From contig JAPOQA010000014.1 in assembly GCA_026710945.1 (NCBI GenBank), positions 110,213-174,212 on the forward strand: 64,000 nucleotides of DNA, given 5' to 3'. Numbering within the stretch: the first letter of the stretch is position 1; the number at the start of each line of letters is the position of its first letter. This stretch comes from Chloroflexota bacterium (GTDB taxonomy: Bacteria > Chloroflexota > UBA11872 > VXOZ01). Shown here piece by piece: positions 6,412 through 60,589 of this stretch. Under the pieces are notes generated by a model. It was not told the DNA's origin. It worked only from the letters and a program-made list of their open reading frames with translations, and searched no databases. Both the position numbers and the translations under genes were made by a program.

Positions 6412-6447
6412 TTCTCAGTAGCGTGCTGCAAGATCGACTATGAGTCT

Positions 6448-9100: not shown

Positions 9101-9134
9101 GCTCCACTCCGCACACTAGTGGCGGCATTCAAGT

Positions 9135-9542: not shown

Positions 9543-9937
9543 TCCGCTTCCTCACTCCCGGGCATCATCAGCATAGAGCGGCCTGACAATATCGGTCGAT
9601 TTTGGTGAAAGGCCGTAATCTCAACCACAATCACGTCCATACCGGCCCGTGACGTGGCCTGGACGACTTCTGCGGTCGCGGTGAGCGTACTGTCTACTGG
9701 GGCGATGTCTTGGAACGAGAACTCCTGGGTAGCGTGTACCGAACCGGGCGGTAGTCCAATGGCCTCTATAAGCCCCGCTAGGACCCATGCCGCAATTGCC
9801 AGCGGTGGCGCAACGTTGCCGTCGCCGTGGTACAGCGGACTCTCACTGCCGACCGCGGCAAGATACTGCTGCACTCTGTCGGGGGAAACGTGTACCGTTT
9901 GTTCAGGAAAGCGATAACCGACGGAAAACCGAGGCAT
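9539..9937 (-). CDS. FAS1-like / MaoC N-terminal dehydratase subunit (HadA-like)
   Basis: 132 residues from the ATG at 9937 (MPRFSVGYRFP), which has AAAGAGA upstream; an earlier ATG at 10000 adds 21 residues unlike the family. The segments YLAAVGSESPLYHG, GSVHATQEFSFQDIAPVDSTLTA and a final GRSMLMMP strand match the FAS1-type dehydratase region (hotdog fold without the Asp-His pair). It is the expected non-catalytic, acyl-chain-binding partner of the MaoC gene that overlaps it by 4 bases. Confidence 0.8.
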   Translation of the reverse strand: MPRFSVGYRFPEQTVHVSPDRVQQYLAAVGSESPLYHGDGNVAPPLAIAAWVLAGLIEAIGLPPGSVHATQEFSFQDIAPVDSTLTATAEVVQATSRAGMDVIVVEITAFHQNRPILSGRSMLMMPGSEEAE

Positions 9938-10254
9938 GTCTCTTTGCTCGTTCAGCGCTAGGTATGGGTAACCGGGATGGCGCGACCCACACACCTGCAT
10001 TGAATTCCACTACAGCGACTCTGTCGGCTGCAATTCTACTCCTCATTCACGCCTGAAGGATGCAAGCCACTGCGGCCCATTATAGCCGCAAAGGCTGCGC
10101 CCATTCCAGATGCACGTACGCGCCCACCATATGCGTGAAGTTGGTGTACAATAACCAGCAAAACACCCATCACCTGACTCGGATTGCACTGAAGTACGCG
10201 CAAGGTACCAACTGAAGATTCTTTGATAGCAAAGATTCCGAGCAAGGGGTCGAA
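9938..10254. other. Intergenic region between divergent genes
   Basis: About 317 bases separating the minus-strand dehydratase pair from the plus-strand CsoR gene. It holds a TATAAT on the minus strand at 10079-10084 and a TACAAT on the plus strand at 10147-10152, both without a convincing -35. I could not identify a clear CsoR-type palindromic operator. Confidence 0.4.
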
Positions 10255-10614
10255 TTGTCTGAAACGCCGAACGGACACCGCTATCAAACCGAGCAGCAGG
10301 CCTTGCTCAATCGGCTGCGGCGCATCGAGGGCCAGGTGCGGGGCATTCAGCGCATGGTTGCGGAAGACCGCTATTGCGTGGAAATCCTCCAACAAATGGC
10401 GGCAATTACGTCCGGTTTACAGGAAGTCTCGCTGATTGTGTTGAGGAACCACATCGAGGGATGCGTATCGGAAGCGATTCGTTCCGGCGAAGAGGAAGAA
10501 CTCATCGAGGAGTTGATGAACGCGATTCGAAACGGTGTCGGCCGTTGGGTGGTTCCCCCGCACACGGCGAGTACGACGGAGCCGGTATCAAGAATATTTC
10601 AACAAGAGGAGTAA
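10255..10614 (+). CDS. csoR: CsoR/FrmR family metal-sensing repressor
   Basis: 119 residues, all-helical DUF156 family: LLNRLRRIEGQVRGIQRMV then YCVEILQQM and a helix with NHIEGCV. The Cu(I) ligand triad Cys41-His66-Cys70 has the exact 25/4 spacing of CsoR copper sensors, so copper rather than formaldehyde (FrmR) is the likely signal. The start is TTG at 10255, five bases after AAGGGG. It is followed three bases later by a Gfo/Idh dehydrogenase rather than a copper exporter, which is unusual: no copA or copZ is in view, so its target is unclear. Confidence 0.88.
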   Translation: MSETPNGHRYQTEQQALLNRLRRIEGQVRGIQRMVAEDRYCVEILQQMAAITSGLQEVSLIVLRNHIEGCVSEAIRSGEEEELIEELMNAIRNGVGRWVVPPHTASTTEPVSRIFQQEE

Positions 10615-10617
10615 ACT

Positions 10618-11613
10618 ATGGCACGTGTTGGCTGGGGCATTATTGGATGCGGCGACATCGCGAACAAAGCCGTGGCGCCTGCCGTCAACGAGGATCCAAA
10701 TAGTAGCCTTGTTGCCTTCGCGAGTAGCAGCCAGGAGCGGGCGGAGGACTTCTCGACGAGGCATGGCGCGCAGCGGGCTTATAGCGACATTGAAGCGTTC
10801 CTCGCAGACCCGGAGATTGATGTAGTCTATGCCGCCAGTCGCGTGTATGAGCATCTGCCGCAGACAATTGCTTCCGCGGCGGTGGGCAAACACGTGCTCT
10901 GCGAAAAGCCGATGGCGCTCACGGATGCCGAGTGCCGTGAGATGATCTCTGCCTGTCAGCAGGCCGGTGTGAATTTGGCGATCGCCTACTACCGGCGCTA
11001 CTATCCCAAGAACATCAAGATCAAGGAGCTACTCGCTAGCGGGGCAATCGGCACACCGGTCTTGGTGCGCATGGTCTTGACCGGCAACTACGACCCGACG
11101 CCGGATGACCCGAAGATCTGGCGCGTAGACCCGGCGAAAAGTGCCGGGGGTCCGATCGCAGACGTAGGCTCCCATCGACTCGATCTCCTTTGCCACTGGT
11201 TTGGCGATCCTGTTGCGGTGGCGGCCCGCAACGAGACGCTCGTGCACTCGTATCCCGCGGACGATGCGGATGTGCTATTGATCAAGATGGCAAGCGGCGT
11301 TCAGGTGACCGCCTCCTTTCACTGGAGCATAGGCGTCGGTTACGACACGATTGAGATATTTGGAACGGAAGGAGCGCTGTTCAGCACACCTACCGATGGG
11401 GCGAATCTGGTCCTGAAGCATGCCGCGGGTACCGAGGAATTTGACCTCCCGAATGCGGAGAATAAGCACTCACCGCTTGTCGAGGACTTTAGCGCGAGGG
11501 TCCTGGCAGGTGAACCGCCGCTCTACTCGGGTGAAGACGGAGCCAAAGCAACGCGCATCATAGAGACCTCTTTCGCAGCAAGCCGCGCCGAAAAGTGGGT
11601 GACAATCGAATGA
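10618..11613 (+). CDS. Gfo/Idh/MocA family oxidoreductase
   Basis: 331 residues. N-terminal Rossmann domain with GIIGCGDIANK, the VLCEKPMAL motif whose Lys is catalytic in the family, then the alpha/beta substrate domain with YYRRYYP and GGPIADVGSHRLDLLCHW containing the His of the usual DxxxHxxD-like signature. Such enzymes oxidise sugars, inositols or related polyols with NAD(P). It starts 3 bases after csoR and its stop overlaps the ATG of the next gene (ATGA), so it is translationally coupled to the PLP enzyme. Substrate unknown. Confidence 0.9.
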   Translation: MARVGWGIIGCGDIANKAVAPAVNEDPNSSLVAFASSSQERAEDFSTRHGAQRAYSDIEAFLADPEIDVVYAASRVYEHLPQTIASAAVGKHVLCEKPMALTDAECREMISACQQAGVNLAIAYYRRYYPKNIKIKELLASGAIGTPVLVRMVLTGNYDPTPDDPKIWRVDPAKSAGGPIADVGSHRLDLLCHWFGDPVAVAARNETLVHSYPADDADVLLIKMASGVQVTASFHWSIGVGYDTIEIFGTEGALFSTPTDGANLVLKHAAGTEEFDLPNAENKHSPLVEDFSARVLAGEPPLYSGEDGAKATRIIETSFAASRAEKWVTIE

Positions 11614-12707
11614 TGAACATAATTGGCCGACCGGCAGAAGACATCGACACGCCGGCACTGTTGGTCGATCTCGACATCTTGGATCGCAACGTTGCTCACA
11701 TGGCACGCGTCATCATCCATGATGCGGGCATCAATTGGCGTCCGCACACCAAAGGCATCAAGTCGCCTGCCATAGCGCACTTACTTGTGGATGCCGGCGC
11801 AATTGGGGTTACATGCGCCAAGCTCGGTGAAGCCGAGGTGATGGCCGCAGGCGGCATCCGCAGTATTCTCATCGCTAACCAGATCGTTGGACCCCAGAAG
11901 ATTGAACGGCTGGTCAACCTCCGCAGGCATGCCGACGTGATTCCTGCCGTGGACAACGAGGACAATGTCCGCGAGATTGCCGAAGCGGCGGCACGCAAGG
12001 GCGTGCGGCAACGCGTAGTGGTTGAAATCAACGTAGGCATCGACCGGGCCGGGGTGCTTCCAGGCGAGCCGGTACTTAGCTTGGCAAAGAAGGTCGCATC
12101 TTACCCAAGTCTTGAGTTCGCGGGGGTCATGGCGTGGGAAGCGTTGGTTCTCGGCGCCAAGGATGATGCTGAGAAAGCGCGCATGGTCAAAACGGCTATC
12201 TCACAGCTCACCGAAAGTGCAGATCGTTGTCGCGATGCTGGGTTACCGGTGGAAATCGTGAGTTGCGGCGGCAGCGGGACGTATTGGCACACCGCGTTCC
12301 AGCCGGGCGTAACTGAAATCCAGGGCGGAGGCGGCATTTTTTGCGACATTACGTACCGCGAGCGGTTCGGGGTAAAGCATGATTATGCGCTTACGGTTCT
12401 CTCAACCGTAACCAGTAGGCCCGCACCGACGCGCATCATCTGCGACGCGGGCAAGAAGACGATGAGTACGGATGCAAGCACCCCCAAGCCCTGTGGTCTG
12501 CCTGAAGTCGCCTCCGTAGGTTGTTCGGCAGAGCATGGGACAATTCACCTGGTAGAGGGGTCCGATATTCCCCGCGTCGGAGACAAGATTTCGTTCATTG
12601 TGGGCTATGGGGATACGACCGTGTTCCTGCACGACAACTTCTACGGCATTCGCGACGGCCGCGTGGAGGTGGTGTGGCCGATACTCGGTCGCGGCAAACT
12701 GCAGTGA
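11610..12707 (+). CDS. D-threonine aldolase / D-serine dehydratase-like PLP enzyme
   Basis: 365 residues of the alanine-racemase fold type III: DTPALLVDLDILDRNV, then WRPHTKGIKS with the PLP lysine, INVGIDRAGV, and a C-terminal beta domain ending GRVEVVWPILGRGK, the signature of the DSD1/D-threonine-aldolase family. At the place where characterised members have a His-x-Cys or His-x-Asp metal pair this protein reads GYGDTTVF, so the histidine seems replaced by tyrosine. Start chosen as the ATG overlapping the stop of the upstream dehydrogenase. Coupling suggests both act on one beta-hydroxy or amino acid substrate. Confidence 0.82.
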   Translation: MMNIIGRPAEDIDTPALLVDLDILDRNVAHMARVIIHDAGINWRPHTKGIKSPAIAHLLVDAGAIGVTCAKLGEAEVMAAGGIRSILIANQIVGPQKIERLVNLRRHADVIPAVDNEDNVREIAEAAARKGVRQRVVVEINVGIDRAGVLPGEPVLSLAKKVASYPSLEFAGVMAWEALVLGAKDDAEKARMVKTAISQLTESADRCRDAGLPVEIVSCGGSGTYWHTAFQPGVTEIQGGGGIFCDITYRERFGVKHDYALTVLSTVTSRPAPTRIICDAGKKTMSTDASTPKPCGLPEVASVGCSAEHGTIHLVEGSDIPRVGDKISFIVGYGDTTVFLHDNFYGIRDGRVEVVWPILGRGKLQ

Positions 12708-12714
12708 GAAAAAC

Positions 12715-12756
12715 GAATCGCTCTCAAGCCTCGCTTCGGCGGCAAGAGAGCGATTC
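12715..12756 (-). terminator. Hairpin terminator with UUCG loop, between convergent genes
   Basis: A perfect 10-bp stem (AATCGCTCTC / GAGAGCGATT, extendable by one G-C pair) encloses an inner CGC-TTCG-GCG tetraloop stem. On the minus strand it is followed by CGTTTTTC, so it best terminates the Trm112-like gene; on the plus strand it lies 8 bases after the PLP-enzyme stop but has only a weak T-rich tail. Probably bidirectional. Confidence 0.7.
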
Positions 12757-12833
12757 TGAATTTCGTACGCATGCCTTGAATTGCGCGTTTACGACAGGCG
12801 TCGCACCGTTCGTGCCCGTCTCTAAAGCGAGAT

Positions 12834-13085
12834 CTACCCTGTGGGAATGCCCATCTCGATCAACATTACCGGGATGTTCTCATCAATTCGGTAGATTGTG
12901 GCGCCGTCATCGGTAATCAGCCCTTCTTCCAGCGGCTTGTCGACCACGTTGCCGTCTTGATACGTGACCTCGTCGCTTTCAATGCGGGAATTAAGCTGGC
13001 TGATCTCATCACTTGAAAGAGGGCGCAACTGCGCCTTGGTAGCGGGGCACCGCAGGATTTCGAGTAGTTGTTCGCTTATGGGCAT
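12834..13085 (-). CDS. Trm112-like small protein
   Basis: 83 residues beginning MPISEQLLEILRCPATKAQL, which is the Trm112/YcaR family opening, and ending in a RIDENIPVMLIEMG strand typical of the same family. Trm112 proteins are small zinc-ribbon activators of methyltransferases. Only the first Cys of the usual CPxC zinc site remains (CPAT), so metal binding may be lost, as in many bacterial members. ATG at 13085 follows GGAG with 10 bases spacing. It stands alone, ending near the hairpin at 12715-12756. Confidence 0.78.
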   Translation of the reverse strand: MPISEQLLEILRCPATKAQLRPLSSDEISQLNSRIESDEVTYQDGNVVDKPLEEGLITDDGATIYRIDENIPVMLIEMGIPTG

Positions 13086-13323
13086 GGCATCAAGTCTCCG
13101 GGGTAATGAGTGAGTTTTCGCACATTTCGTATTAGCGAGGACCGTTGCTGCTGACAATCAAATGTGACAAGGGCTTGCTTATGGTCCGAACACACGAGGC
13201 CTAAAACAGGCATGAACGTGTCAATCATATTCACATTTGTCAGTCTGCCTGTCCCCTGTTTCAAAGGTAGGAGCGCAATGTAAGCTCTATTCATCCTCAG
13301 TCTAAGAACGGCGCAATGCACTG

Positions 13324-13956
13324 TCAACCAGACCGTGCCCTGACTACACGATACGGAATCTTGCCAAGTCGGGTGAGAACGGTAGGTCCTAAATTGAAGA
13401 GCGCAAGATCGGCAATGAAGTGGACGATTATGGGTGTAAGAATCGTGCCAGACACCAAGAAAAGGAGTCCGAACAAGACACCTCCTGCAGTAGCAAGCAG
13501 CAGGAACGGCAGCGGGAATCCGGCTATACGGTGAATGAAGCCGAATATTACGGCAACGCCGATGAAACCCACCGCCGCAGGCAAGAATCCTATACTCATC
13601 GCCCACGACTGCAGCATGCCCCGAAAGAAGAGTTCCTCGGCAGGCGCATTAAAGAAGAGGAAGTATCCATCCTCGATGGCGTGGGCGCGGCGGGACGCCA
13701 AGCTGTGGATTGGCCAATAGCGCGCGCGGAACAGCGTACAGGCAGCAAATGCCGGAATGCCAGTGCCCAGGATGAGTGCGACGTCTAGGCCGGTAATGCG
13801 CCAGGAGAGCTTTAGCGTTTCGGCCCCACCTGCCAGGGCATAGGCCCAAACAAGAGCCACAATCGCGAATGGGAGGAGCCGACGAACAACATCCCAGCCT
13901 ATCCACCGCAGCGAGTCGCGCGCCGTACGGAAGGGAATAGCGGGCGTACGGTTCAT
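13324..13956 (-). CDS. CPBP (CAAX/Abi-type) intramembrane protease
   Basis: 210 residues with about six to seven membrane helices. Motif 1 is APAEELFFRGML (EExxxR), motif 2 FGFIHR, and motif 3 HFIADLALF, together the signature of CPBP glutamic intramembrane endopeptidases (the bacterial Rce1-like family). Motif 3 has Asp in place of the more frequent Asn. Substrate cannot be predicted. It lies 18 bases downstream of ruvB on the same strand and may be read through from that operon. Integral membrane protein. Confidence 0.85.
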   Translation of the reverse strand: MNRTPAIPFRTARDSLRWIGWDVVRRLLPFAIVALVWAYALAGGAETLKLSWRITGLDVALILGTGIPAFAACTLFRARYWPIHSLASRRAHAIEDGYFLFFNAPAEELFFRGMLQSWAMSIGFLPAAVGFIGVAVIFGFIHRIAGFPLPFLLLATAGGVLFGLLFLVSGTILTPIIVHFIADLALFNLGPTVLTRLGKIPYRVVRARSG

Positions 13957-13974
13957 AAGTCGTGAATCCGTAAT

Positions 13975-15009
13975 CTAATCGAAGAGGCGGGGCTGATCTT
14001 TGTCAGCGGCTTCACCGGCGTCAAGCCCCAAGTGCTCGTATGCCGCGGAGAGCACCACTCGTCCACGTGGCGTTTTGGCCAGGAAGCCAAGTTGCATCAG
14101 ATACGGTTCGTAGACATCCTCGATGGTCTGCGCTTCATCGCCAATTGCTGCCGCTAGAGTGTCGATACCGACCGGCCCGCCGCCAAACTTCTCGAGAATT
14201 GTCATGAGAATCGTCCGATCCACCGCGTCCAGCCCTAGTCCATCGATCTCCAGGCTTTCCAAGCAGTCTTCAGCCAGGGAGGAGGTGATACGTCCGTCGC
14301 CTTTCACCTGCGCCCAGTCTCGGATGCGACGCAGCAGTCGATTGGTTATGCGCGGCGTGCCGCGCGATCGCTGGGCGATTTCATTTATTCCTGCTTTGTC
14401 AATTACCACACCCAAGATTCCGGCTGAACGGTGGACGATTTTTCGCATGGCGTCAATGTCATAGTACTCCATGTGGAAGTGTGCACCGAAGCGGTCCCGC
14501 AGAGGGGAACTGACCAGGGCAAGCCGGGTGGTTGCTCCTATGAGCGTGAATTGGGGTAGCGAGAGACGTATACTGCGCGCCGCCATGCCTTTGCCCATGA
14601 CAATATCTAAAGCAAAGTCCTCCATCGCCGGATAGAGTATCTCTTCCACGGCACGATGGAGGCGATGCACTTCGTCAATGAAGAGGATGTCATGCGAACG
14701 TACGTTAGAAAGGATTGCTGCCAGGTCTCCCGCACGCTCGATGGCCGGCCCGGCGGTGACTCTGATGTTGACGCCCATTTCGGTAGCCAACACGTTTGCA
14801 AACGTTGTCTTGCCCAGCCCAGGCGGGCCATGGAAAAGAGTATGATCAAGCGGCTCCTGCCGCTGTTTCGCGGCAGTGATGGCAATACGCAAGTGCTCCC
14901 GCACTTTTTCCTGGCCGATGCACTCTTCCAGGGAGCGCGGACGCAGCGACTGCGCAACTTGGAGGTCTTCCGGCTCCTCTTGCGGCGCAACGACGCGTGT
15001 GTCGGTCAT
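13975..15009 (-). CDS. ruvB: Holliday junction branch migration helicase RuvB
   Basis: AAA+ motor of the RuvAB branch-migration complex. 344 residues from the ATG at 15009, which follows AAGGAATGAGC; an upstream in-frame start at 15048 lacks support. Seen: [19 protein letters not shown], Walker [10 protein letters not shown], Walker [11 protein letters not shown], sensor [20 protein letters not shown] and the C-terminal winged helix with [18 protein letters not shown]. It follows ruvA by 133 bases on the same strand, the normal ruvC-ruvA-ruvB order. Confidence 0.97.
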
Positions 15010-47213: not shown

Positions 47214-47402
47214 ATGCGGAAAACACTGAAGAAGATTGCCCACATCGCGCTCTTCTTGGTGGCAATCATTGTCTTTTATCTCGGACTAGGCATCGGCTTG
47301 ACGGCGAATCCCACGCTCGGCACCGCCCTCTGGGTTGTCGCCATAGCCATCGCCGTCGCCAACCTGTTTTGGATCCTCCGCTCACGCTTGCGGCAAGAGT
47401 GA
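47214..47402 (+). CDS. Small two-helix membrane protein
   Basis: 62 residues: basic N-terminus (MRKTLKKIAH), helix IALFLVAIIVFYLGLGIGL, short loop, helix ALWVVAIAIAVANLFWIL and a basic end (RSRLRQE). GGAGAG lies ten bases before the ATG. It follows the transglutaminase gene by 215 bases. No known family. Confidence 0.6.
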   Translation: MRKTLKKIAHIALFLVAIIVFYLGLGIGLTANPTLGTALWVVAIAIAVANLFWILRSRLRQE

Positions 47403-47589
47403 CCACACTAGGGCAAGTTAGATTGCTCCCAGGAAACTAACTTTGACTAATCACTTGACGACTGTCGCACAATTCTGTTGGTGCCTTGCTCTCATCATCC
47501 GCAATGCTAGATGGAATACAGAGTTTGCTGAGTGTAGCTATAGGCCCGTCGATAGATCCGTGCCAACTAAGAACGTCAGGTAACTACCC

Positions 47590-49347
47590 TTAAAGGTTGT
47601 TGTCACTCTTGAATTTGGCAAAGTCAGTGTAAACCGATAGGAACACCGGAGCACCTGTAAATGACAACGGCGAAACTGGACCCGTAATCATGAAAGTATA
47701 CTGTGATGGTCGGATTGCCTGAGGGTCAACGAAAGATCGATAGAGGTCTAGAGCTTCTGGGTCCCCTATGGTTTCACGGAGGCGTTGCAGCTCAGTACCT
47801 GAGGTAAGACCATACCCAAAGCTGCGCACTCTGAGTTGAGAGTAAATGCCTCGGCGCAATGAATTGATCTCCTGGGTAATGAACATCCAACCAAGACCGA
47901 ATTTTCTGGTAGTTCGAACATAATCTACTAGTCGGTCAGCAAGGGAAATAGATTCGTCGTCTTCAGGGCTCTCCGCCGCGAAGCGTTGAGCTTCGTCGAA
48001 GACAACCATTGTATTGAGAGTGCGGTTTTCTTTAAAGCGACTTTCTGCAACTCTTGCGATAGAACCGCAAATCTCACGTAGTAAACGTGCCTTAATGCGA
48101 GTTGTCTCTAGGATAGCGGCAGGTGAATCGGAATCGGCAACTCCTGAAACATCCTTGCTAGATACGTCAACTATTATCACCGGACGTGTCTGCACATCAG
48201 TATTCAACAGACCGTGTAGCACAGATTCCATGGATTCTCGGTTTCCACCACTGAGATTCTTGCTTGAAAACAGTGAGTGGAGTGGCTCAAATTGATCCCG
48301 AGCCATCCGAAAGACCTGTTCGTTGTCCAAAATTGAATGAATCTGTGCCGATAGCTTCTTTCTGTGTTGTATTGTTGCATAAATTCGCTCAATAGCTGAG
48401 TCGTCGCCTGCAAGAACTTCCAATACACTCCGCAAGAGCGACGCAGCATCTTTCTCTGGCCAGTTTTCTTGACTTTGAACGACACGTGTAAGTTCGGCTA
48501 CCGCCGATTCAGATGGATCTTTGCTACGAATTGATAGGAGGTCTTTGAAGAAGCGAGTGCTTTCCAATAGCTCAATAAACAGGGGTGCGTTTTTTCGAAG
48601 GCGCAGGTCTTGAGAAACAGACAGCACTTTGACCTCTCTCCCCATCTCCTTCGAGCATCTCTGAAGTGAGAAAGGAAGGCCTGCCTCGCTCGCGAATTGT
48701 CCTTGTGGATCAATGATGAGTATTCCGAGATCAGTGTGGCGTGCATATGCAGCGAGCAAGTATGCAGCGAAACCTGACTTACCACTCCCAGTCATTCCAA
48801 AGATGCCAATATGATATGCTTCGCCAGCACCACCAGTCGCCGCGGAACCAAAGTGGCGGAGAGTCAAAGGTAGCCTAACATCCTCCATGCCGTAAGCCAT
48901 CCCCAACCGTATGATGTTGCTCTCGTGGCGTCGAAGAAGATTAGACAAGAATTGGTCCGTAATTTTTCGCACTCGGGCACCCGTTGTCGGGGACATAGCA
49001 AGGGCTCCGCCACTTTCCTTGGCAGGACTTCCACATGCAGGATTCTCATGGTCTGCGATATAGACAGCTTGCACGGCCACATCAGCCGTTCGAACATCAC
49101 CAACCGCGCTAAGATGCGGAAGACTGCCATGATGCTTGAGAACTCCTCGCATGTTTGGATCCTCATGCCATCGATTTGATGTCTTAATCTCCATGACAGT
49201 ACCTAGAGCGATTAAGTAGCTGTTGTCTAGCTGATGAATCAGGGAGACAAGCTGGCCGCGCAGCGGAAAGTCGGCAGCATCTTCCATGATGTCAACGGTC
49301 ACTCTTGCCGTTGTACTGGGAGAACCCACCAATCCTATCTCATCCAT
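47590..49347 (-). CDS. HerA-like DNA-translocating ATPase
   Basis: 585 residues. N-terminal HAS-barrel-like beta region (to about residue 150), then a FtsK/HerA ATPase: Walker A GIFGMTGSGKS (Lys190), ILIIDPQGQFASEAG, Walker B MVVFDEAQRFA, and FGLGWMFITQEINSLRRG sensor with an Arg-rich C-terminal part. HerA forms hexameric rings that pump DNA into NurA. The gene starts 2 bases after a NurA-domain gene, its standard partner. Here the pair is preceded by a DUF4338 gene and lies among defence genes, so a defence role is more likely than archaeal-style end resection. Confidence 0.88.
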   Translation of the reverse strand: MDEIGLVGSPSTTARVTVDIMEDAADFPLRGQLVSLIHQLDNSYLIALGTVMEIKTSNRWHEDPNMRGVLKHHGSLPHLSAVGDVRTADVAVQAVYIADHENPACGSPAKESGGALAMSPTTGARVRKITDQFLSNLLRRHESNIIRLGMAYGMEDVRLPLTLRHFGSAATGGAGEAYHIGIFGMTGSGKSGFAAYLLAAYARHTDLGILIIDPQGQFASEAGLPFSLQRCSKEMGREVKVLSVSQDLRLRKNAPLFIELLESTRFFKDLLSIRSKDPSESAVAELTRVVQSQENWPEKDAASLLRSVLEVLAGDDSAIERIYATIQHRKKLSAQIHSILDNEQVFRMARDQFEPLHSLFSSKNLSGGNRESMESVLHGLLNTDVQTRPVIIVDVSSKDVSGVADSDSPAAILETTRIKARLLREICGSIARVAESRFKENRTLNTMVVFDEAQRFAAESPEDDESISLADRLVDYVRTTRKFGLGWMFITQEINSLRRGIYSQLRVRSFGYGLTSGTELQRLRETIGDPEALDLYRSFVDPQAIRPSQYTFMITGPVSPLSFTGAPVFLSVYTDFAKFKSDNNL

Positions 49348-49349
49348 AG

Positions 49350-50465
49350 TCAGACCCCCTCGGTACGATATGAGCGAATCAGGACCTCTGAGAGCTCAGG
49401 TCTGCCCATACCGCTTAGACCAAGTTGTACGGCGGTCTGGAGCGCACTTAGACCCAGGCCTACGGACTTAGCCATTACGTCCGAAAGATATTGTGGGTAC
49501 GGCTCTCTGACGAATGGCCCAGTGATCTGACTGCTAAGTGTTGAGCAGAGAATGTCTAAATCGGGCTCTTGCACTACAGGCTTAATCTCCAGGCGAAATG
49601 CAGGAGACAGCCGGTCTGGCTTAAAGTATGTAAACATAAGTCTTCGTTCTTTAAGCGGTAGGATTGCGTCTGTGAAAGACTGCTCTAAGTCCTCATCTGC
49701 GGAAGATCCAGCGTTGAAGTGTAAGGTCTGCCAGGGGTGTTTTGGAACTTGCTGGGGAACTAGCAACTCTCCAGGCTCCAGGAGGAGGCCCATGAGATAC
49801 TTGTCATCTCCTGGTAACGAAATTCCCAACTGGGCTTCCAACCTGTCTGCAATCGTATTCGACGAATCGTACTTAGGCATAGCTATGATGTCAGGGTTAG
49901 AGCAGACTTCAGCTAAGCCCTTTTCAGTACCAAGACGCTTCCATACACGTCGGGCTTCACTACGAATGTCTGGTGACTCAGAGCTCAAGGCTGAATTTAG
50001 CTGAATTACAAGGGTCAAGTGTGACCCATCAAGAATCCGCAGGCTATGGGGTGCCACTTCCAATATCGCGATTTCCGATGCAACCATGACTCCTCTCGCC
50101 AAGCGTTCGGCGTCCACATTGTGCCTGGCTACATTGGTCCACCATTCGTACTGAGTGGAGTCCCAGATAGTTGTTGATCCCAGACCTTCCACACCGACCC
50201 CAACTGCTAGTGATAGGTCAATCGCAGAGGTTCGCTCTACAGCGAATCCGCCATCAATTCCAGCAATTGAACAGGGGGACATGTTCTTGAATGTGCGGAT
50301 GAGGCCAAGGTCTAGCAGTACACTTCTTAAACGATCACGAGAGTCGAGCACTGGGGCAAGTAGACTTGCGACCTCCTCGACGACTTCGCCTGCACCTGCG
50401 AGAAGATCCCTCAAAAGGTCCTCAGGCAGTCGAGCATACCCTTCACGACTTTCATTCGACAACAT
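49350..50465 (-). CDS. NurA-domain nuclease
   Basis: 371 residues. SIAGIDGGFAVER carries the first metal Asp (Asp71), RILDGSHLTL the second (Asp146), and the C-terminus has REPYPQYLSDVMAKSVG, the usual NurA closing segment but without the His that often stands there. NurA is a 5'-3' nuclease driven by HerA, whose gene follows after 2 bases. 29 bases separate it from the DUF4338 gene upstream. Confidence 0.82.
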   Translation of the reverse strand: MLSNESREGYARLPEDLLRDLLAGAGEVVEEVASLLAPVLDSRDRLRSVLLDLGLIRTFKNMSPCSIAGIDGGFAVERTSAIDLSLAVGVGVEGLGSTTIWDSTQYEWWTNVARHNVDAERLARGVMVASEIAILEVAPHSLRILDGSHLTLVIQLNSALSSESPDIRSEARRVWKRLGTEKGLAEVCSNPDIIAMPKYDSSNTIADRLEAQLGISLPGDDKYLMGLLLEPGELLVPQQVPKHPWQTLHFNAGSSADEDLEQSFTDAILPLKERRLMFTYFKPDRLSPAFRLEIKPVVQEPDLDILCSTLSSQITGPFVREPYPQYLSDVMAKSVGLGLSALQTAVQLGLSGMGRPELSEVLIRSYRTEGV

Positions 50466-50494
50466 AAGGGTGTTGACTCATTTGTCAGATGTGT

Positions 50495-51685
50495 CTATTT
50501 GTTCCAAAGAAGATAGGTCTTGGGGTCAAACTTCCGGTAAGACTTGTTCCGCCCTGCCCTTGGAAGAAGCCAACGCTCCTTGAAGTGCGAAAATAGACTC
50601 TCCATGTCACTACACGAGTAGTCCAACACATTTTCATAACCTGAAAGGAATTGCCGACTATTGGTGGCCAGTGGTGCCACAAACACCTGGCGCCTAATTC
50701 CGTGGAAGTTAAGAGAATGGGGCAGTCCCAATTTGCGAAGTGCTTTTCGCACTACCTCTCTCCTGCTGCGAAATCCAGTTCCCCAATTCTTATTCTTGGC
50801 AGTTGGGCTGCAATTGGCTTCCACGAACGAATACAGCTCGTCGTACAGACCATTTGCAAAGTGAAACTCTCCTGATCCCAAAGTGAATCCGACTGGTTCA
50901 AATACTAGGCGGCCATGAAACCGAATTCTATTGTACATAGAAGAGCGGCCCAACGCAGATGTCGTGGTAAGCATAGCAACTCTAGAGTCCCCACTTGCAC
51001 CACTAATTAGCGCGGTCTTCTGTGCATACTTACGCTCGAAAGTGCTTCGAACCTCATTGCTTGTAGCCAGCATGGCAATGAGTTTTCCACCCAAGAGATT
51101 AGAATATGGTGGAACGGCACCAAGTACGTAGGCATCCAATACGTGGCGCAAACGGATTCTTCTCTCTGACGAGTTCCATCCAATCCACTGGTCTCTTGCT
51201 GCCAAGCCAAATACTGGATCACCAATGCCAATAACTCCTATGAGCCTATTGTTATGGGAGTCGAGAACCAAGAATCTTATGCGTCGTCCGTAGCCTGAAG
51301 ACACAGGAATGCTCCAGTGAAGAGCCGCATAGCGAAAGAGCAATTCATCTTGAGTACCAGGCAATACCTCCACAAGTCGAGGAGCAATGCAATGCGGATT
51401 CACTTCAGAACCGGCGGCAATTCGCTCAATGAGCATAGGTTCTTTTGAACGTAGACCAGAAGCTCGCTCAATTCTGTGTTGTACTGCGAGGAAGTGTAGC
51501 CTCCTAAGTAACTCTTTGTCGGTATGGTCTGGAGGCTGTATTCCTGATTCTGTCAAGACAAATCCTTGATCCTTTAGAGATTGGATTACCCTCTCCCGCA
51601 GTAAGTTAACGCTTGAGTCGTCTTCCTCTGGGGATTCCTGAGGATTTTGATTGTTGTCTGCATGCTTGGGATTTATATCTGTCAT
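50495..51685 (-). CDS. DruA-like DUF4338 protein
   Basis: 396 residues. The middle has the DUF4338/DruA core: RIRFLVLDSHNNRLIGVIGIGDPVFGL split over two strands, RDQWIGW, then VPPYSNLLGGKLIAMLATSNEV and TTTSALGRSSMYNRI. DUF4338 is the DruA component of Druantia anti-phage systems, function unproven. No DruB-E homologue is present; instead NurA and HerA follow on the same strand within 30 bases. ATG at 51685; a TTG at 51697 is also possible. C-terminal half is basic, consistent with nucleic-acid binding. Motif segments are abbreviated. Confidence 0.75.
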   Translation of the reverse strand: MTDINPKHADNNQNPQESPEEDDSSVNLLRERVIQSLKDQGFVLTESGIQPPDHTDKELLRRLHFLAVQHRIERASGLRSKEPMLIERIAAGSEVNPHCIAPRLVEVLPGTQDELLFRYAALHWSIPVSSGYGRRIRFLVLDSHNNRLIGVIGIGDPVFGLAARDQWIGWNSSERRIRLRHVLDAYVLGAVPPYSNLLGGKLIAMLATSNEVRSTFERKYAQKTALISGASGDSRVAMLTTTSALGRSSMYNRIRFHGRLVFEPVGFTLGSGEFHFANGLYDELYSFVEANCSPTAKNKNWGTGFRSRREVVRKALRKLGLPHSLNFHGIRRQVFVAPLATNSRQFLSGYENVLDYSCSDMESLFSHFKERWLLPRAGRNKSYRKFDPKTYLLWNK

Positions 51686-51837
51686 CGAGAAATTCAACTC
51701 TAACAGTCAGCTCACCCTTACTTATGACCAATAGCGACCAATCGTAGATCAAGATGAATTAGCTCGTTTCCACATTAGCAACTCTCCGAGGATTGTGAAA
51801 GGCTTCGCTCCCAATTGATACCCAAGACCATCCAAAA

Positions 51838-54714
51838 TTGGATGAAGGTAGCGCCTACGTTTCGCCGCTTGTGGAGCGCATTGCGGTTATCCGAGCAGAA
51901 ATTTTTCAGCGGGCGCGTGAGTCGGATTGGGCTATAGACAAGCTGCAACTCACCGATCAGGCCATCATCCGGCGCATGGTGCTGAAGCGCTGCATCTACG
52001 GTGTAGATAAGAACCCGCTGGCCGTGGAGCTGGCCAAGGTCTCGCTCTGGCTCCATAGCTTCACCGTCGGCGCGCCGCTCTCGTTCCTGGACCACCACCT
52101 GCGTTGCGGTGACTCGCTGCTTGGCATGCGCGTGACGGAAGCCGTTGACGAACTGAATCGACTGGGCGGCTTGGCCGCATGGTCAGCTATGACAGGCGCG
52201 GAGAATGCCGCCGCGGGCATGCAGCGCATCGAGTCCCTTTCTGATGCCGACGTGGCCGAGGTGCGGGAGTCCGCGGCGCTCTTTCAGGGTGTGGAAGAGA
52301 CCACCGCCGAACTCCGCGGCCTGCTTGACATACTCTGCGGCATGCGCTGGCTGACTGCGGGCATGAAAAAGCAAGAGCGCACGCTCTTTGAGTTACCTTT
52401 GCTCGAGACCTTAGACCAAAAACCTGTCGACGCCTTCAAGCTCCTGGCGCACGGGCCGGACGCAATTGAGTCTCAAACACCGGTTGGCATCGCTCATTCC
52501 CGCGCAGACAGCAACCGTCATTTGGGCGCACTCGGGAATCCATCTTCGCCTGATGCAGCATCTTCCGGTAGCGCAGGTTCGCACGAGACGTGCGCGCAAC
52601 CTGCGTCCGAAGAGGGCAGAGAATCGGCGGACGATGCGGGCGGGCAAGCCTCCGCGCTACGCCGCCATTCCCGCGCAAGCGCCTCGCTCCGTCATTCCCG
52701 CTTGCGCGGGAATCCATCTTCCTCCGAATCCGTGGACTCGCCTGCCAGCGGGAACCCATATTCCCCGCCTAAGATGGACTCCCGTTTTCACGGGAGTGAC
52801 GACCAGAAGCCCGCCCAACCATCCTCCGGTAGCGCAGGTTTGCAACCTGCGTCCGGCGGAGGGAAAGAATCGAAAACGCGGGCCAGTGACCAACGTGCCG
52901 CAACCGAATTCGCAACCCTCTGGCGCAACGCTAGAACTATCGCCGACCGGGAGACCTTCCTGCACTGGGAGGTGGCGTTTCCGGGGGTGTGGCAAAAGTG
53001 GCAGGACGCGCAGCCGGCCGGCGGGGTCGACGCCGTGATCGGCAATCCGCCCTCGGACCGTATCAAGCTGCAGGAGGTGGAGTGGTTCGCCACCCGCGCG
53101 CCGGAACTCGCCCGCGCCCCCACCGCGGCGGCGCGCCGGGCTGAAATTGCGGCGTTGCGCAAGCAGGGCGACCCGCTGGCGGCGGACTTCGATGACGCCA
53201 AAGCCCGCGCCGACAGCCTGGGCAAACTGGTGCGGGCTTCCGGCCACTATCCCCTGCTGGGCGGAGGTAACATAAATCTCTATTCGCTCTTCGTCGAGAA
53301 CGCCTTGCGCCTGGTCAAAACCGACGGTCTGGTCGGCCTGCTCACCCCGTCCGGCATCTATGCCGATAAGACCGCGGCCAAGTTCTTTAAGTCGGTTTCC
53401 ACTCGCGGGCGTGTGGCCGGACTGTACGACTTTGAAAACAGGAAGATCTTCTTCAAGGACGTGCACGCCTCGTTCAAGTTCTGCGCCCTCATCGTTGGCG
53501 GCACGGCACGGCGGTTCGACGAGACCGCATGCGCTTTCTTCCTCCACGACACCAAGACCATCACCGATGCTGACCGCTGCTTCCCGTTGGCGCCGGAGGA
53601 CTTCGCCCGCGTCAATCCCAACACCGGCACCGCCCCGGTCTTCCGCACCCGCCGCGACGCCGACATCACCCGCGCCATCTACGCCCGCCACCCCGTCCTC
53701 GTCAACCGCTCCGACGGGGGTGAGAAGAAAACCTGGCCGGTCAAGTACGTGCGCATGTTCGACATGACCAACGACTCCCACCTCTTCCGCACCGCCACGC
53801 AGCTAGACGAAGAAGGCTTCTATCCCGTCCAAGGCAACCGCTGGCAACGCGGGAAGGAGCTCTATCTGCCTCTCTACCAAGGCCGCATGATCCATCAATT
53901 TGACCATCGCGCCAACTCAGTTCGGGTCAATCTTGAGAGCACCCACAACCCTTACCTCAGCGAAGAGGTTAGCGAATTGCAGCACGCGAACCCGAAATTC
54001 CTACCCCAATCTGAGTATTGGGTCCCCGCTCAGAATGTAGGTTCGGCACTGCCTTTGAATCGGGAGTATGTTCTAGGCATTCGTCACATTACCCGGCCTA
54101 CAGATGCGAGAACCGCAATCACCGCCATTGCGCCGTTTTCTGGCTTTGGCAACAGCATTCCAATTCTTACATTGGACGAAATAGCCATGGGTGAACCCAG
54201 GGAGTCTCGAGAAGATGGGATAGACTTCCGTGCAACCACACTGGCCTGCCTTGTGGCAAACCTGAACTCAATCTGCCTAGACTTCATTACAAGACAGAAG
54301 ATTCAGGGCGCGAACTTCAACCTGTTCATCATCGAGCAACTCCCCGTGATCGCCCCCGCCGGCTACGACCGCCAATTCGGCCAGACCACCGCCCTTGCCC
54401 TCATCCGCGACCACGTGCTACGCCTCACCTACACCGCCCACGACATGGCGCCGTTCGCCCGCGACCTCGGCTACACCGGCCCTCCCTTCATTTGGAATGA
54501 AGAAGAGCGCCGCCACCTCCGCGCCCGCCTCGACGCCTGCTACTTCCACCTCTACGGCATCTCCCGCAACGACGCCGCCTACATCCTCAGCACCTTCCCC
54601 ATCGTCCAACGCCAAGACCAAGCCACATTCGGTACCTACCGCACCCAAAACCTCATCCTCGCCTACATGAACGCCCTCACCGCCGGCGACACCAAAACCG
54701 TGGTAGATTTGTAA
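51838..54714 (+). CDS. Eco57I-type DNA methyltransferase / type IIG-like protein, 5'-truncated
   Basis: 958-residue frame opening at TTG 51838 with the upstream stop at 51796. It starts in the middle of the methyltransferase domain: DEGSAYVSPLVERIA and GVDKNPLAVELAK (SAM motif II) and RCGDSLLG (III) are present, but motif I (the CGSGxF loop) and everything before it are missing. Motif IV reads NPPS (Ser406) instead of NPP(Y/W/F). C-terminal target-recognition-like region includes INLYSLFVENALRLVK and IIEQLPVIAP. Residues about 219-345 derive from inserted palindromic repeats. Probably inactive as a methyltransferase. Confidence 0.7.
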   Translation: MDEGSAYVSPLVERIAVIRAEIFQRARESDWAIDKLQLTDQAIIRRMVLKRCIYGVDKNPLAVELAKVSLWLHSFTVGAPLSFLDHHLRCGDSLLGMRVTEAVDELNRLGGLAAWSAMTGAENAAAGMQRIESLSDADVAEVRESAALFQGVEETTAELRGLLDILCGMRWLTAGMKKQERTLFELPLLETLDQKPVDAFKLLAHGPDAIESQTPVGIAHSRADSNRHLGALGNPSSPDAASSGSAGSHETCAQPASEEGRESADDAGGQASALRRHSRASASLRHSRLRGNPSSSESVDSPASGNPYSPPKMDSRFHGSDDQKPAQPSSGSAGLQPASGGGKESKTRASDQRAATEFATLWRNARTIADRETFLHWEVAFPGVWQKWQDAQPAGGVDAVIGNPPSDRIKLQEVEWFATRAPELARAPTAAARRAEIAALRKQGDPLAADFDDAKARADSLGKLVRASGHYPLLGGGNINLYSLFVENALRLVKTDGLVGLLTPSGIYADKTAAKFFKSVSTRGRVAGLYDFENRKIFFKDVHASFKFCALIVGGTARRFDETACAFFLHDTKTITDADRCFPLAPEDFARVNPNTGTAPVFRTRRDADITRAIYARHPVLVNRSDGGEKKTWPVKYVRMFDMTNDSHLFRTATQLDEEGFYPVQGNRWQRGKELYLPLYQGRMIHQFDHRANSVRVNLESTHNPYLSEEVSELQHANPKFLPQSEYWVPAQNVGSALPLNREYVLGIRHITRPTDARTAITAIAPFSGFGNSIPILTLDEIAMGEPRESREDGIDFRATTLACLVANLNSICLDFITRQKIQGANFNLFIIEQLPVIAPAGYDRQFGQTTALALIRDHVLRLTYTAHDMAPFARDLGYTGPPFIWNEEERRHLRARLDACYFHLYGISRNDAAYILSTFPIVQRQDQATFGTYRTQNLILAYMNALTAGDTKTVVDL
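52517..52546 (+). repeat. 30-bp dispersed palindromic element, copy 1 (degenerate)
   Basis: Starts GTCATT and ends GGGAATCCATCTT, same length and ends as the copy at 52691. The left arm has decayed. Lies inside the methyltransferase frame. Confidence 0.6.
52561..52616 (+). repeat. Palindromic element type A, copy 1
   Basis: TCTTCCGGTAGCGCAGGTT and AACCTGCGTCCGAAGAGGG arms around a GC-rich loop. Shares both arms with the copy at 52822. Confidence 0.75.
52691..52720 (+). repeat. 30-bp dispersed palindromic element, copy 2
   Basis: ATTCCCGC-TTGC-GCGGGAAT perfect 8-bp hairpin followed by CCATCTT. Lies within the methyltransferase frame and does not break it. Confidence 0.8.
52771..52800 (-). 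repeat. 30-bp dispersed palindromic element, copy 3 (inverted)
   Basis: Reverse complement reads GTCACTCCCGT-GAAA-ACGGGAGTCCATCTT: same element in the opposite orientation with compensatory changes in both arms (ACTCCCGT / ACGGGAGT). Confidence 0.75.
52822..52863 (+). repeat. Palindromic element type A, copy 2
   Basis: TCCTCCGGTAGCGCAGGTT-TGC-AACCTGCGTCC, shorter loop than the copy at 52561. The GCGCAGGTT/AACCTGCG(T) arms pair. Confidence 0.75.
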
Positions 54715-54809: not shown

Positions 54810-55934
54810 TTGCCATTTGAATTAGAACTCCTTGAAACTCTACTCCATGAGGAAGAAGGAGCCTCGCTTGACTTTAAGGCGGCACAGTATCCTTTTGACA
54901 AGGCTGACATCGGCCAGAAAGCAAAATTGCTCAAAGATATCTTGGCCTTTACGAATTCCTGGCGCCGAGCAACCGCCTACATACTGATTGGCGTGGAAGA
55001 GGTGAAGGGAAAGCGGAGCAGAATTCTCGGCGTAACAGAGCATCTGGACGATGCCCGTCTCCATCAGTTTGTTAATGGAAAGACCCAACGTCCTGTCGAG
55101 TTCATCTACAAGATTGTGCAAATCGAGGGCGTTGAAATTGGTGTCATTGAAATCCCCCTGCAAGATCGTCCTGTGTATTTGAAAAAGCGGTATGGCGACC
55201 TGGGTAGCAGTGACGTTTACATTAGAGATGGTAGTTCGACGAGGGTTGCCACGCCCGATGAGATTGCGAAGATGGGAAGTCAAGGTGTGTTGGAAGAGAC
55301 ACCGCAATTTTCGCTTGACTGGGCAGACCTTGATTCAAGAACTGCGCTTGAGTCGCCATGTATACTGCACTCTCTGGCACTTTTTCCGCCTCTTCCCGAC
55401 GATACATTCACACCACCGCGTTCTGCTTATCTAACCGTGGATATCGGTCGGAACCCAAGATATTCTGAGGAGGTCATCTGGTGTACATTCGAGAGGGCCT
55501 TCTTTATTGGGATTGGTGTGAAACTCTACAATAAAAGCGGAGTGCTTGGGAAAAACATAAGATTTGAAGGAGTTCTGAGCAAGTCCGGCGGGGTAGAAGT
55601 GAAAGAGGTGCTGAAGAGTATACCCATCGAAGGCATACAGACAGTGCCATTTGACTCGATGCCTCTGGTTGGCCAAAAGCCTGAGACCCACTTGGAAGAC
55701 CGTAATGATGAGTGGGAGATCGTCGTGGAATTTGGGGATATTCGGCCACGAGAAACAGTGTGGACGACTAATCCGTTTTGGTTCGGCTGTGCGCATCCTA
55801 CACTAGCAAAACTGGAAGGGCAGTTGTTTGGTGACAACTTACGCGAGCCAACACCTTGCTCGCTGGAGATCCAGTTCGAGGCAGAGCAAAGACCGATGAC
55901 AGAGGTTGACGCGGCACCCTACCTAGATCAATAG
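54810..55934 (+). CDS. Schlafen AlbA_2-domain protein
   Basis: 374 residues. The first 150 match the AlbA_2 (Schlafen core-like) domain: LLHEEEGASLDFKAAQYPF, KLLKDILAFTNSWRRATAYILIGV and IEIPLQDRPVYLKKRYG then VYIRDGSSTRVATPDEI. The rest is beta-rich and unassigned. AlbA_2 proteins bind nucleic acids; several occur in defence or toxin settings, Schlafen relatives cut tRNA. TTG start at 54810 after AGGGAGCG. It sits between the decayed methyltransferase and a CBASS operon. Segments abbreviated. Confidence 0.78.
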   Translation: MPFELELLETLLHEEEGASLDFKAAQYPFDKADIGQKAKLLKDILAFTNSWRRATAYILIGVEEVKGKRSRILGVTEHLDDARLHQFVNGKTQRPVEFIYKIVQIEGVEIGVIEIPLQDRPVYLKKRYGDLGSSDVYIRDGSSTRVATPDEIAKMGSQGVLEETPQFSLDWADLDSRTALESPCILHSLALFPPLPDDTFTPPRSAYLTVDIGRNPRYSEEVIWCTFERAFFIGIGVKLYNKSGVLGKNIRFEGVLSKSGGVEVKEVLKSIPIEGIQTVPFDSMPLVGQKPETHLEDRNDEWEIVVEFGDIRPRETVWTTNPFWFGCAHPTLAKLEGQLFGDNLREPTPCSLEIQFEAEQRPMTEVDAAPYLDQ

Positions 55935-56049
55935 AGATGCAGGGCAAACCAGGTCACGATTTGTTGATTTGGTAGGACCTATCACTGCCTATCGGGCATC
56001 GTAAGCGAATTGGCTGCTTACGTCATCGGCATTGGAGAAGAAATCCGCT

Positions 56050-56928
56050 ATGGCAATTCCCAAACCACAACTAAGCAGATGGTCTCACCATGGACCTCAG
56101 GAAGCTTCGATTCGCACTCATCAAGCAATAAGATCGGCGCTCGAGGCCCACTCCTGGCCTCAAGGAATGACATATGATGTCTATCTTCAGGGCTCCTACA
56201 AAAACGACACCAACATCCGTGGAGACAGCGACGTTGATGTAGTTGTGCAACTTACCTCTGCATTTAGGCATGACGCAAGTTTGCTGTCCCCATTGGAACA
56301 GAATCAGCTAGACTCGACATTCTCTACAGCCCTGTACGATTGGGGTGACTTCAGACGCGAAACACTTAAAGCCCTAGTGAATTGGTTCGACAACAGCTTA
56401 GTGGCTCAAGGCAACAAATCAATCAAGATAAAAGCTAACCCTCCAAGGTTAGCAGCCGACGTCGTTGTTTGTATGGAGTACCGGAGGTATCTCAACTATT
56501 ACTCATACGTAGAAGGCATCACATTTTGGGCATTGCAGGACAAGTACTGGATCATCAATTTTCCGACAGAGCATTACAAGAATGGTGCGGCCAAGAGCGT
56601 CAGCACTTTTGACAGGTACAAGCGCACTGTGCGAATGTTCAAGAATGCCCGCAATTTCCTGGAGTCCAATGGAATAATCAATGCTGTGCTGGCCCCATCT
56701 TACTTTATTGAATCTCTTCTCTATAATGCGCCTAACGCAACATTTCAATACGGATTTCAGGATACCTACTGTTCAATTGTGAAATGGATGGCTTCAACCA
56801 ATCTCAATGAGCTTGTTTGCCAGAATGGTCAGCAATACTTGTTCGGGCCGTCTCCCGATCAGTGGTCAGTGGCGGAGGCTCGGGCTTTTGTAAACAGTTT
56901 AGTGGCGTTGTGGGAATTCTGGAGTTGA
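56050..56928 (+). CDS. CD-NTase (CBASS cyclic-oligonucleotide synthase)
   Basis: 292 residues of the DNA-polymerase-beta-like nucleotidyltransferase fold: the LQGSYKNDTNIRGDSDVD motif holds Gly48-Ser49 and catalytic Asp61/Asp63, and AADVVVCMEYR provides the third carboxylate Asp137. The OAS-like helical C-terminal half (FDRYKRTVRMFKNARNFL, APSYFIESLLYN) follows. On infection such enzymes make cyclic di- or trinucleotides. ATG 56050 follows GGAGAAG by nine bases. The next gene, one base away, is a Cap15-like effector, which fixes this as a CBASS cyclase. Confidence 0.9.
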   Translation: MAIPKPQLSRWSHHGPQEASIRTHQAIRSALEAHSWPQGMTYDVYLQGSYKNDTNIRGDSDVDVVVQLTSAFRHDASLLSPLEQNQLDSTFSTALYDWGDFRRETLKALVNWFDNSLVAQGNKSIKIKANPPRLAADVVVCMEYRRYLNYYSYVEGITFWALQDKYWIINFPTEHYKNGAAKSVSTFDRYKRTVRMFKNARNFLESNGIINAVLAPSYFIESLLYNAPNATFQYGFQDTYCSIVKWMASTNLNELVCQNGQQYLFGPSPDQWSVAEARAFVNSLVALWEFWS

Positions 56929-56929
56929 G

Positions 56930-57529
56930 GTGGATCAAGTGCATCCTTACCAGGCGGATAGTAGGGAGTGGGTACTGGTTTCCCTCGCCATAGTCAGTGT
57001 CTTGTTAGTTTGGCTCCTTGATGTTGGCTTGGATTCCATCAGTTTTGAACCCCCCTGGTGGATTAGCGCGCCATCGTTTGTGGGAATCTACACGCTCCTC
57101 TATAAAGTGTTTGACCTCCACCTATGGAGATTGGGACTTCTACGGAGCCTCAAGCTAGTTGAGGTGCCAGATTTAAATGGCAAGTGGTCGGGCTGGGTCA
57201 AATCGTCACATACACAGAGCACCGTTGCAAATCCAGTCTCAGTATATATACGGCAAAGCTGGTCCAAGATAGTCTTCAGACTCGAGACCGAACACTCTCG
57301 CTCGAATAGTATTGCGGCGGCGATTAGGACGGATGACCTTCCATATCCCGAATTCGTGCACCTCTACGTGAACGAGCCTAAGTCGACTGCCCTCGACACG
57401 ATGAACATCCACAAGGGTACAGCGACGCTTGAGCTAAAGGGTACGATACTTGAGGGCGAATACTATTCAGGCAGGGGAAGAAGAGAGTTTGGAACGCTTA
57501 GGTTGTGCCGGGATGAAGGCCCCATGTGA
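56930..57529 (+). CDS. Cap15-like CBASS effector (2TM + beta barrel)
   Basis: 199 residues: two N-terminal membrane helices (about 14-34 and 45-65), then a beta-rich domain starting VPDLNGKWSGWVKSS and VSVYIRQSWSKIVFRLET with SRSNSIAAAI and a TATLELKGTILEGEYY strand pair. This is the S-2TM/Cap15 architecture, where cyclic nucleotide binding to the barrel makes the protein oligomerise and damage the inner membrane. GTG start, 1 base after the CD-NTase stop, with GGAG five bases before. A complete two-gene type I CBASS. Confidence 0.85.
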   Translation: MDQVHPYQADSREWVLVSLAIVSVLLVWLLDVGLDSISFEPPWWISAPSFVGIYTLLYKVFDLHLWRLGLLRSLKLVEVPDLNGKWSGWVKSSHTQSTVANPVSVYIRQSWSKIVFRLETEHSRSNSIAAAIRTDDLPYPEFVHLYVNEPKSTALDTMNIHKGTATLELKGTILEGEYYSGRGRREFGTLRLCRDEGPM

Positions 57530-60504: not shown

Positions 60505-60589
60505 TGGTGGGGACGGCGGGACTCGAACCCGCACGCCTTGCGGCACATGATCCTAAGTCATGCTCGTCTTCCAGTTCCGACACGTCCCC
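60505..60589 (-). tRNA. tRNA-Leu (anticodon TAG)
   Basis: Minus-strand GGGGACG acceptor pairs with CGTCCCC, discriminator A and encoded CCA (60507-60505). Anticodon stem CATGA/TCATG with loop CTTAGGA gives anticodon TAG (reads CUN). A long variable arm (TGCCGCAAGGCG) and the GCGGG-TTCGAGT-CCCGC T-arm confirm a class II leucine tRNA. Confidence 0.95.

What the first reader, a model, noticed from the sequence alone, without database searches (positions are those of the whole stretch)
49350..51685. DruA-like protein coupled to NurA-HerA: candidate undescribed defence system
Seen: three minus-strand genes with gaps of 29 and 2 bases, DUF4338 (DruA core), NurA and HerA (HerA extends to 47590). Known: DruA belongs to Druantia with DruB-E, and HerA pairs with NurA or with other effectors in defence, but I know of no described system that joins DruA to NurA-HerA. 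Inference: HerA-NurA would be the DNA-degrading motor, DruA the recognition or activating part.
Basis: partly seen in the sequence, partly recalled or inferred. Interest (0 to 1): 0.85.

Follow-up and report, generated by a model that had tools for sequence, protein, structure and literature searches.

The report
DruA-NurA-HerA three-gene defence cassette
Three adjacent bacterial genes, encoding a DruA-family protein, a NurA-type nuclease and a HerA-type DNA motor, recur side by side in many genomes as one compact set that is predicted to destroy invading DNA, with DruA likely marking the cell's own DNA as off limits.

Summary
In detail: druA (PF14236), a NurA-fold nuclease and a HerA-type ATPase lie head to tail on the minus strand, gaps 29 and 2 bases. 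The coupling is not accidental: among 400 genomes of the window's phylum, all 16 with both DruA and a strong match to this NurA have them side by side, DruA first. The triad also occurs in a second phylum sample and in IMG/VR contigs, and a very different NurA-HerA pair joins DruA in another gene order in two genomes. In the window a 4.45-kb, lower-GC segment holding just these genes stands where four relatives have the start of a type IIG restriction gene, and the host has a separate core NurA. So this is an accessory cassette, not housekeeping repair. DruA's model is a GNAT fold; phage Mu Mom, a DNA-modifying GNAT, ranks first but tied, without profile similarity. No description of the triad was found in the papers and libraries searched. 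Best reading: a restriction-like defence in which HerA-NurA degrades DNA and DruA likely writes a self mark. Defence rests on context; DruA's role is inferred and untested.

The parts
50495..51697 (-). druA: DruA/DUF4338 protein (396 aa from ATG at 51685; 400 aa from TTG at 51697), predicted GNAT fold
   Evidence: (PF14236 356.8 bits)
49350..50465 (-). nurA: NurA-fold nuclease, 371 aa, Asp71/Glu131/Asp146 conserved
47590..49347 (-). herA: HerA-type hexameric ATPase (predicted), 585 aa, Walker A Lys190, Walker B Asp451-Glu452
   Evidence: (DUF87 58.3 bits)
47397..51840 (.). segment not aligned to the same site of four same-genus relatives; holds only the triad; edges 47374-47396 and 51841-51854 depending on the relative
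   Evidence: GC 49-50% in the 2-kb blocks 48001-52000 against 57% and 63% beside them
51838..54714 (+). remaining part of a type IIG restriction-methylase gene that lacks its start in the window
54810..57529 (+). neighbouring defence-like genes: SLFN/AlbA_2 protein, CD-NTase, Cap15 effector (context, not part of the triad)

Best explanation
The three genes form an accessory cassette that is predicted to work as a restriction-like defence: a HerA ring would feed double-stranded DNA into a NurA nuclease that destroys it, while DruA, a protein predicted to have a GNAT fold, likely writes a chemical mark on the cell's own DNA that keeps the machine off it. Shown here: the genes and their conserved adjacency, the predicted NurA and GNAT folds, conserved active-site residues, a lower-GC segment at a site where relatives have another gene, and a separate core NurA in the same genome. 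Inferred from relatives: that HerA and NurA form a complex and cut double-stranded DNA. Inferred and untested: that the target is phage or plasmid DNA, and that DruA is the writer rather than a sensor or an effector.
For: Adjacency in 16 of 16 genomes with both genes. A second, very different NurA-HerA pair next to DruA in 2 of 2 genomes that carry that NurA; its HerA is closest to TdpA among solved structures (E 3.7e-22). 3 of 8 DruA loci of IMG/VR contigs hold the triad. GNAT fold of DruA with phage Mu Mom in the first row, and 54-66% identity of 25 DruA to the window's. NurA and HerA folds and residues. Cassette standing in a type IIG gene, beside CBASS-type and AlbA_2 genes. Second, stronger NurA in 5 of 5 near-complete genomes of the genus, so repair has its own pair. 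Relatives: Thermococcus HerA-NurA cuts both strands of dsDNA (PMC12977600, passages); DruA-type Druantia is listed under DNA modification in PMC12904381 (passages).
Against: Mom is tied within 1 Z with spermidine and other acetyltransferases and profile comparison with the Mom family gave nothing. By eye the usual CoA-binding R/Q-x-x-G-x-G/A motif (recalled) is not kept in DruA. In some proteins DruA is fused to an SspF-like restriction part, and PMC10853773 suggests a back-up effector role for GNAT parts of DndF (passages). Three genomes have this NurA-HerA without DruA, and in the second phylum sample DruA mostly stands elsewhere (triad in 1, convergent form in 1, of 18 DruA genomes). Of the neighbours scanned, several triads sit among ordinary genes. 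No activity was tested.
Confidence: 0.4

Rival explanations
1. DruA is the sensor or adaptor: it would bind a phage-specific DNA structure or protein and load or switch on the HerA-NurA nuclease.
For: DruA sits first in the operon and with several motor-nucleases: NurA-HerA, DruE with a DruK-like nuclease, fused to an SspF-like part. Invariant residues are spread over the N- and C-terminal parts too.
Against: A sensor of phage parts would be expected to vary fast; DruA keeps 54-66% identity to the window's across 25 others. A GNAT fold is mostly an enzyme fold.
Confidence: 0.28
2. DruA is a GNAT-type effector that would act on a host molecule when HerA-NurA meets foreign DNA, giving abortive infection.
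For: GNAT fold; PMC10853773 proposes such co-effector roles for DUF4338 fused to DndF (passages).
Against: HerA-NurA is itself an effector; no toxin-antitoxin layout with DruA in the triads mapped.
Confidence: 0.14
3. The triad is a DNA-repair set, DruA being an accessory of end processing by HerA-NurA.
For: NurA-HerA is studied as an end-resection pair (PMC9960219, passages).
Against: Accessory: in 2 of 6 genomes of the genus, standing in a restriction gene, while 5 of 5 near-complete genomes have a separate NurA with a HerA 2.5 kb away in G000.
Confidence: 0.08
4. DruA is an accidental neighbour of nurA-herA.
For: DruA often stands without NurA-HerA; three genomes have the pair alone.
Against: 16 of 16 genomes with both have them adjacent, plus a second arrangement.
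Confidence: 0.03

Closest known systems
TdpABC (phosphorothioate defence; role of TdpC recalled, no paper held)
   Different: No TdpC was looked for; here DruA stands beside the pair
Druantia type I
   Same: DruA
   Different: No DruE helicase in the operon or the genome; motor and nuclease are HerA and NurA
Archaeal and Deinococcus HerA-NurA
   Same: Same two folds
   Different: Accessory, with DruA, beside a separate core NurA
SIR2-HerA and HerA-DUF4297 defences
   Same: HerA-type ATPase with a paired effector; HerA profile hits their HerA chains among others (names of systems recalled)
   Different: The partner is a NurA fold plus DruA, no SIR2 or DUF4297 domain
Mom-family GNAT with endonuclease (jumbo phages)
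   Same: GNAT fold coupled with a DNA nuclease; read as modification plus restriction in PMC7824862 (passages)
   Different: DruA shows no profile similarity to Mom; nuclease is a HerA-driven NurA
DndF/SspF proteins with N-terminal DUF4338
   Same: DUF4338 joined to a DNA-restriction machine (PMC10853773 passages; L100, L101)
   Different: Fusion, not an operon with NurA-HerA

Membership tests
Druantia | DruE helicase, common to the three described types (PMC13316683, passages) | tested here: not met
   No DruE match in the genome (the same search rings in 12 of 14 control genomes); none among the operon's genes
Druantia | DruA (type I) | tested here: met
   PF14236 356.8 bits; PDLC00002 369.4 bits
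HerA-NurA pair | NurA fold with acidic active-site residues | tested here: met
HerA-NurA pair | HerA-type ATPase with Walker A and B | tested here: met
   DUF87 58.3 bits; Lys190, Asp451, Glu452 in 17 of 17
HerA-NurA pair | physical complex that translocates and cuts DNA | not testable with these tools
   Only single chains could be modelled
TdpABC | TdpC phosphorothioate writer | not tested
   No TdpC model or sequence was at hand
GNAT superfamily | GNAT fold | tested here: met
GNAT superfamily | acyl-CoA binding and transfer | not testable with these tools
   By eye the usual CoA motif (recalled) is not kept
Mom family | profile similarity to Mom | tested here: not met
   hhalign probability 0.7%, E 0.076; no PF25680 match
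SIR2-HerA / HerA-DUF4297 | SIR2 or DUF4297 effector | tested here: not met
   No such domain in the three genes
Restriction-modification system | a DNA mark that protects self DNA | not testable with these tools
   Needs nucleoside analysis and deletion tests

The most novel reading that the evidence does not exclude
DruA is the writer of an unknown, acyl-type DNA base mark and HerA-NurA is a processive nuclease that spares marked DNA: a restriction-modification principle without a methylase or a phosphorothioate, in which one GNAT-fold writer has been combined with several different DNA-destroying engines (two kinds of NurA-HerA, DruE with a DruK-like nuclease, SspF-like proteins).
Probability: 0.3. 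Interest if true: 0.9.

Novelty: new variant of a known kind. Interest (0 to 1): 0.7.

Why it matters
DruA has been a named defence protein without a known job. Here it recurs with a compact motor-nuclease whose enzymes are well studied, in a 4.45-kb, three-gene cassette that can be moved whole into a laboratory strain. That makes DruA's role directly testable: leaving druA out should be toxic if it writes a self mark, and harmless but defenceless if it is a sensor. If the writer reading holds, it would point to a new kind of DNA mark and bear on Druantia as well.

Tried and rejected
Mom membership: hhalign of 26 DruA against 29 Mom rows (Mu plus 28 of the 120 listed of 852 hits) found nothing; Mom stays a fold-level likeness, tied with ordinary GNATs. 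No Mom name was seen among the 50 rows shown of the viral library.

Partner exchange inside the first assembly: identities cross (window-L081: DruA 53%, NurA 29%, HerA 37%; L081-L076: 37%, 57%, 70%) and DruA distances hardly track the others, but AU tests do not reject joint inheritance (p 0.57 and 0.13). Suggested, not shown.

A fixed fourth gene: a type IIG gene overlaps herA in L004 and L010, but the neighbours scanned at other triads differ. G300 (L089) has a HerA-like protein three genes after DruA and a 429-aa protein with an ALDGS motif; its NurA identity is too weak to claim. Promoter and terminator scans were at the shuffled level; short repeats in the cassette look like chance and I saw no transposase-sized gene in it. 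DruA and the second NurA have no sequence relative among solved structures at E below 0.5.

Plasmids and phages: no phage match to this NurA; six plasmid regions opened; the five with annotation show no triad (three have DruA with a DEAD/DEAH helicase), the sixth (L160) has no annotation and was not analysed.

Literature: searches for Tdp found nothing relevant. One search's single paper (a gut review) was not opened; the term also matches the word Druantia. The founding Druantia paper and most subscription papers are not held, so an earlier description there cannot be excluded.

Full report
WHAT IS THERE. Searches confirm three minus-strand genes: druA 50495-51697 (ATG at 51685), nurA 49350-50465, herA 47590-49347, gaps 29 and 2. 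The window is G000:C14:110213-174212. Its nearest triad relative is a Dehalococcoidia assembly (L002), so I take the phylum to be Chloroflexota (inference).

RECURRENCE. An alignment of 35 NurA (of 120 listed) matched 29 of 400 genomes of the phylum: 19 strongly (over 85 bits) and 10 weakly (42-54 bits, not counted as this kind). PF14236 matched 29 of 400. Sixteen genomes have both a strong NurA and DruA; all 16 have them adjacent, DruA first, same strand: 15 on one contig, and G334 across a contig break with a 76-aa DruA piece left before nurA. In G148 and G366 the frames are broken up; in G055 and G120 DruA is short and divergent (about 112 bits). The other three strong-NurA genomes (G126, G174, G182, one genus) have NurA-HerA without DruA. 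Of the 29 DruA genomes, 16 have this setting, two the second one (G064, G371), G265 has DruE and a DruK-like nuclease, G116 shows the same layout (not scanned), and nine are other settings or cut by contig ends, among them G295 and G353, where DruA is fused to an SspF-like part, and G300 and G331 with a HerA-like gene a few genes away. The genome-contig scan gave 8 loci: three triads (L002-L004; L003 cut within herA), one triad split over two contigs (L008, L009), L005 with DruA convergent behind NurA-HerA, L006 with two genes between and herA in two frames, L007 with the upstream side unseen. In the phylum sample centred on the Streptomyces genome of L005, DruA is in 18 of 396. I looked at regions of 17 of the 18 (not G746, nor every further place in G622 and G677); G533 has the triad, G400 the convergent form, the rest no NurA or HerA by my models, several on contigs under 6 kb. 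In IMG/VR contigs found with DruA alone, 3 of 8 loci hold the triad, one of them the contig already met. Thirteen longest-contig lengths are shared between the 120 listed NurA and 120 listed DruA proteins, one being the window's own; suggestive only.

SECOND ASSEMBLY. In G064 and G371 the order is NurA-HerA-DruA. Their NurA are 65% and their HerA 78% identical to each other; the first assembly's HerA profile gives them only 39-41 bits and its NurA profile nothing at E 1e-4. This NurA is in 2 of 400 genomes, both in this setting. This HerA's best solved relative is TdpA (E 3.7e-22). That TdpA-TdpB work with a phosphorothioate writer, TdpC, is recalled; no paper on it was held.

AN ACQUIRED CASSETTE. 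Same-genus genomes G069, G149, G109 and G213 have a type IIG gene beside the same transglutaminase gene, and in G069 the same AlbA_2, CD-NTase and Cap15 genes follow. The IIG gene is one open frame of 1457 aa in G109 and lies in two frames in G069 and G149; G213 was seen in part. In the window the aligned blocks stop at 47374-47396 and resume at 51841-51854; the 4.45 kb between hold only the triad where the relatives have 1.8-1.9 kb with the start of the IIG gene, and no significant match to that start was found in the window. GC is 49-50% in the 2-kb blocks there, 57% and 63% beside them (finer). G109 has its own, distant triad elsewhere. All 5 near-complete genomes of the genus have another, stronger NurA; in G000 a HerA lies 2.5 kb from it on C40. 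So the triad is accessory.

EVOLUTION. NurA and HerA distances agree (r 0.987, 0 of 2000 permutations); DruA's agree poorly (0.18 and 0.16; 70 and 83 of 2000) (16 loci). Identities cross. AU tests leave joint inheritance open.

MECHANISM. HerA-NurA of Thermococcus cuts both strands of dsDNA and needs NurA Asp49; the authors doubt a resection role and suggest defence (PMC12977600, passages). For DruA I commit to a writer of a self mark because of its GNAT fold, its conservation, its place in a TdpABC-like layout and its several partners. PMC12904381 (passages) lists Druantia under DNA modification and says a phage protein, Druad1, evades type I Druantia by promoting methylation of phage DNA; its source was not held. 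Every step about DruA's job is inference.

KNOWN OR NEW. Full-text searches DruA+NurA+HerA, DUF4338+NurA, Druantia+DruA (40 of 47 listed), HerA+NurA+anti-phage, DUF4338, and phosphorothioate+HerA+NurA+thermophil showed no description of the triad in titles, abstracts or the passages I opened; most listed papers were not opened. PMC12458937 and PMC8565338 hold none of the words DruA, HerA, NurA. No PADLOC model hits this NurA. Druantia is not met for lack of DruE. I rate it a new variant of a known kind: a HerA-nuclease defence coupled to DruA.

Noticed in passing
window 56032-57529 (+): A CD-NTase (NF053871 304 bits, under its cut-off of 350) followed by a Cap15-type effector: a CBASS-like pair two genes beyond the triad's insertion point.
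   Followed up: partly
window 54810-55934 (+): SLFN/AlbA_2 protein with a weak PADLOC PDC-S50 match; kept beside the CBASS-like pair in G069.
   Followed up: no
L100 5879-9658, L101 5896-9639: About 1250-aa proteins joining a long DruA form to an SspF-like part.
   Followed up: partly
L159 (Halobaculum plasmid) 5235-14678: Two DruA-annotated genes in a row, followed downstream by a gene annotated as DNA translocase FtsK.
   Followed up: no
L005 3263-4819, L006 6827-8002: HTH plus M78-peptidase proteins (RmrA/PD-Lambda-2_B-like) directly before nurA in the two actinobacterial loci.
   Followed up: partly
L004 10846-14043, L010 10825-14088: A type IIG restriction-methylase-like gene overlaps the end of herA by 4 bases in both.
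   Followed up: partly
DruA model m3500fea95df4 against viral proteins: Giant-virus proteins (Faunusvirus, Yasminevirus, Dasosvirus) share the DruA fold by Foldseek, best E 4.4e-16.
   Followed up: no
L161 (Euzebya plasmid) 5860-12870: A distant NurA-like gene and a DUF87 gene, with a RuvA gene and a DNA cytosine methyltransferase gene close downstream.
   Followed up: no
L083-L085 (G182, G174, G126): NurA-HerA of this kind without DruA; in L083 the gene directly upstream is glycosyltransferase-like.
   Followed up: partly
window 60505-60589 (-): tRNA-Leu gene (Rfam) right of the defence genes; not tested as an integration site.
   Followed up: no
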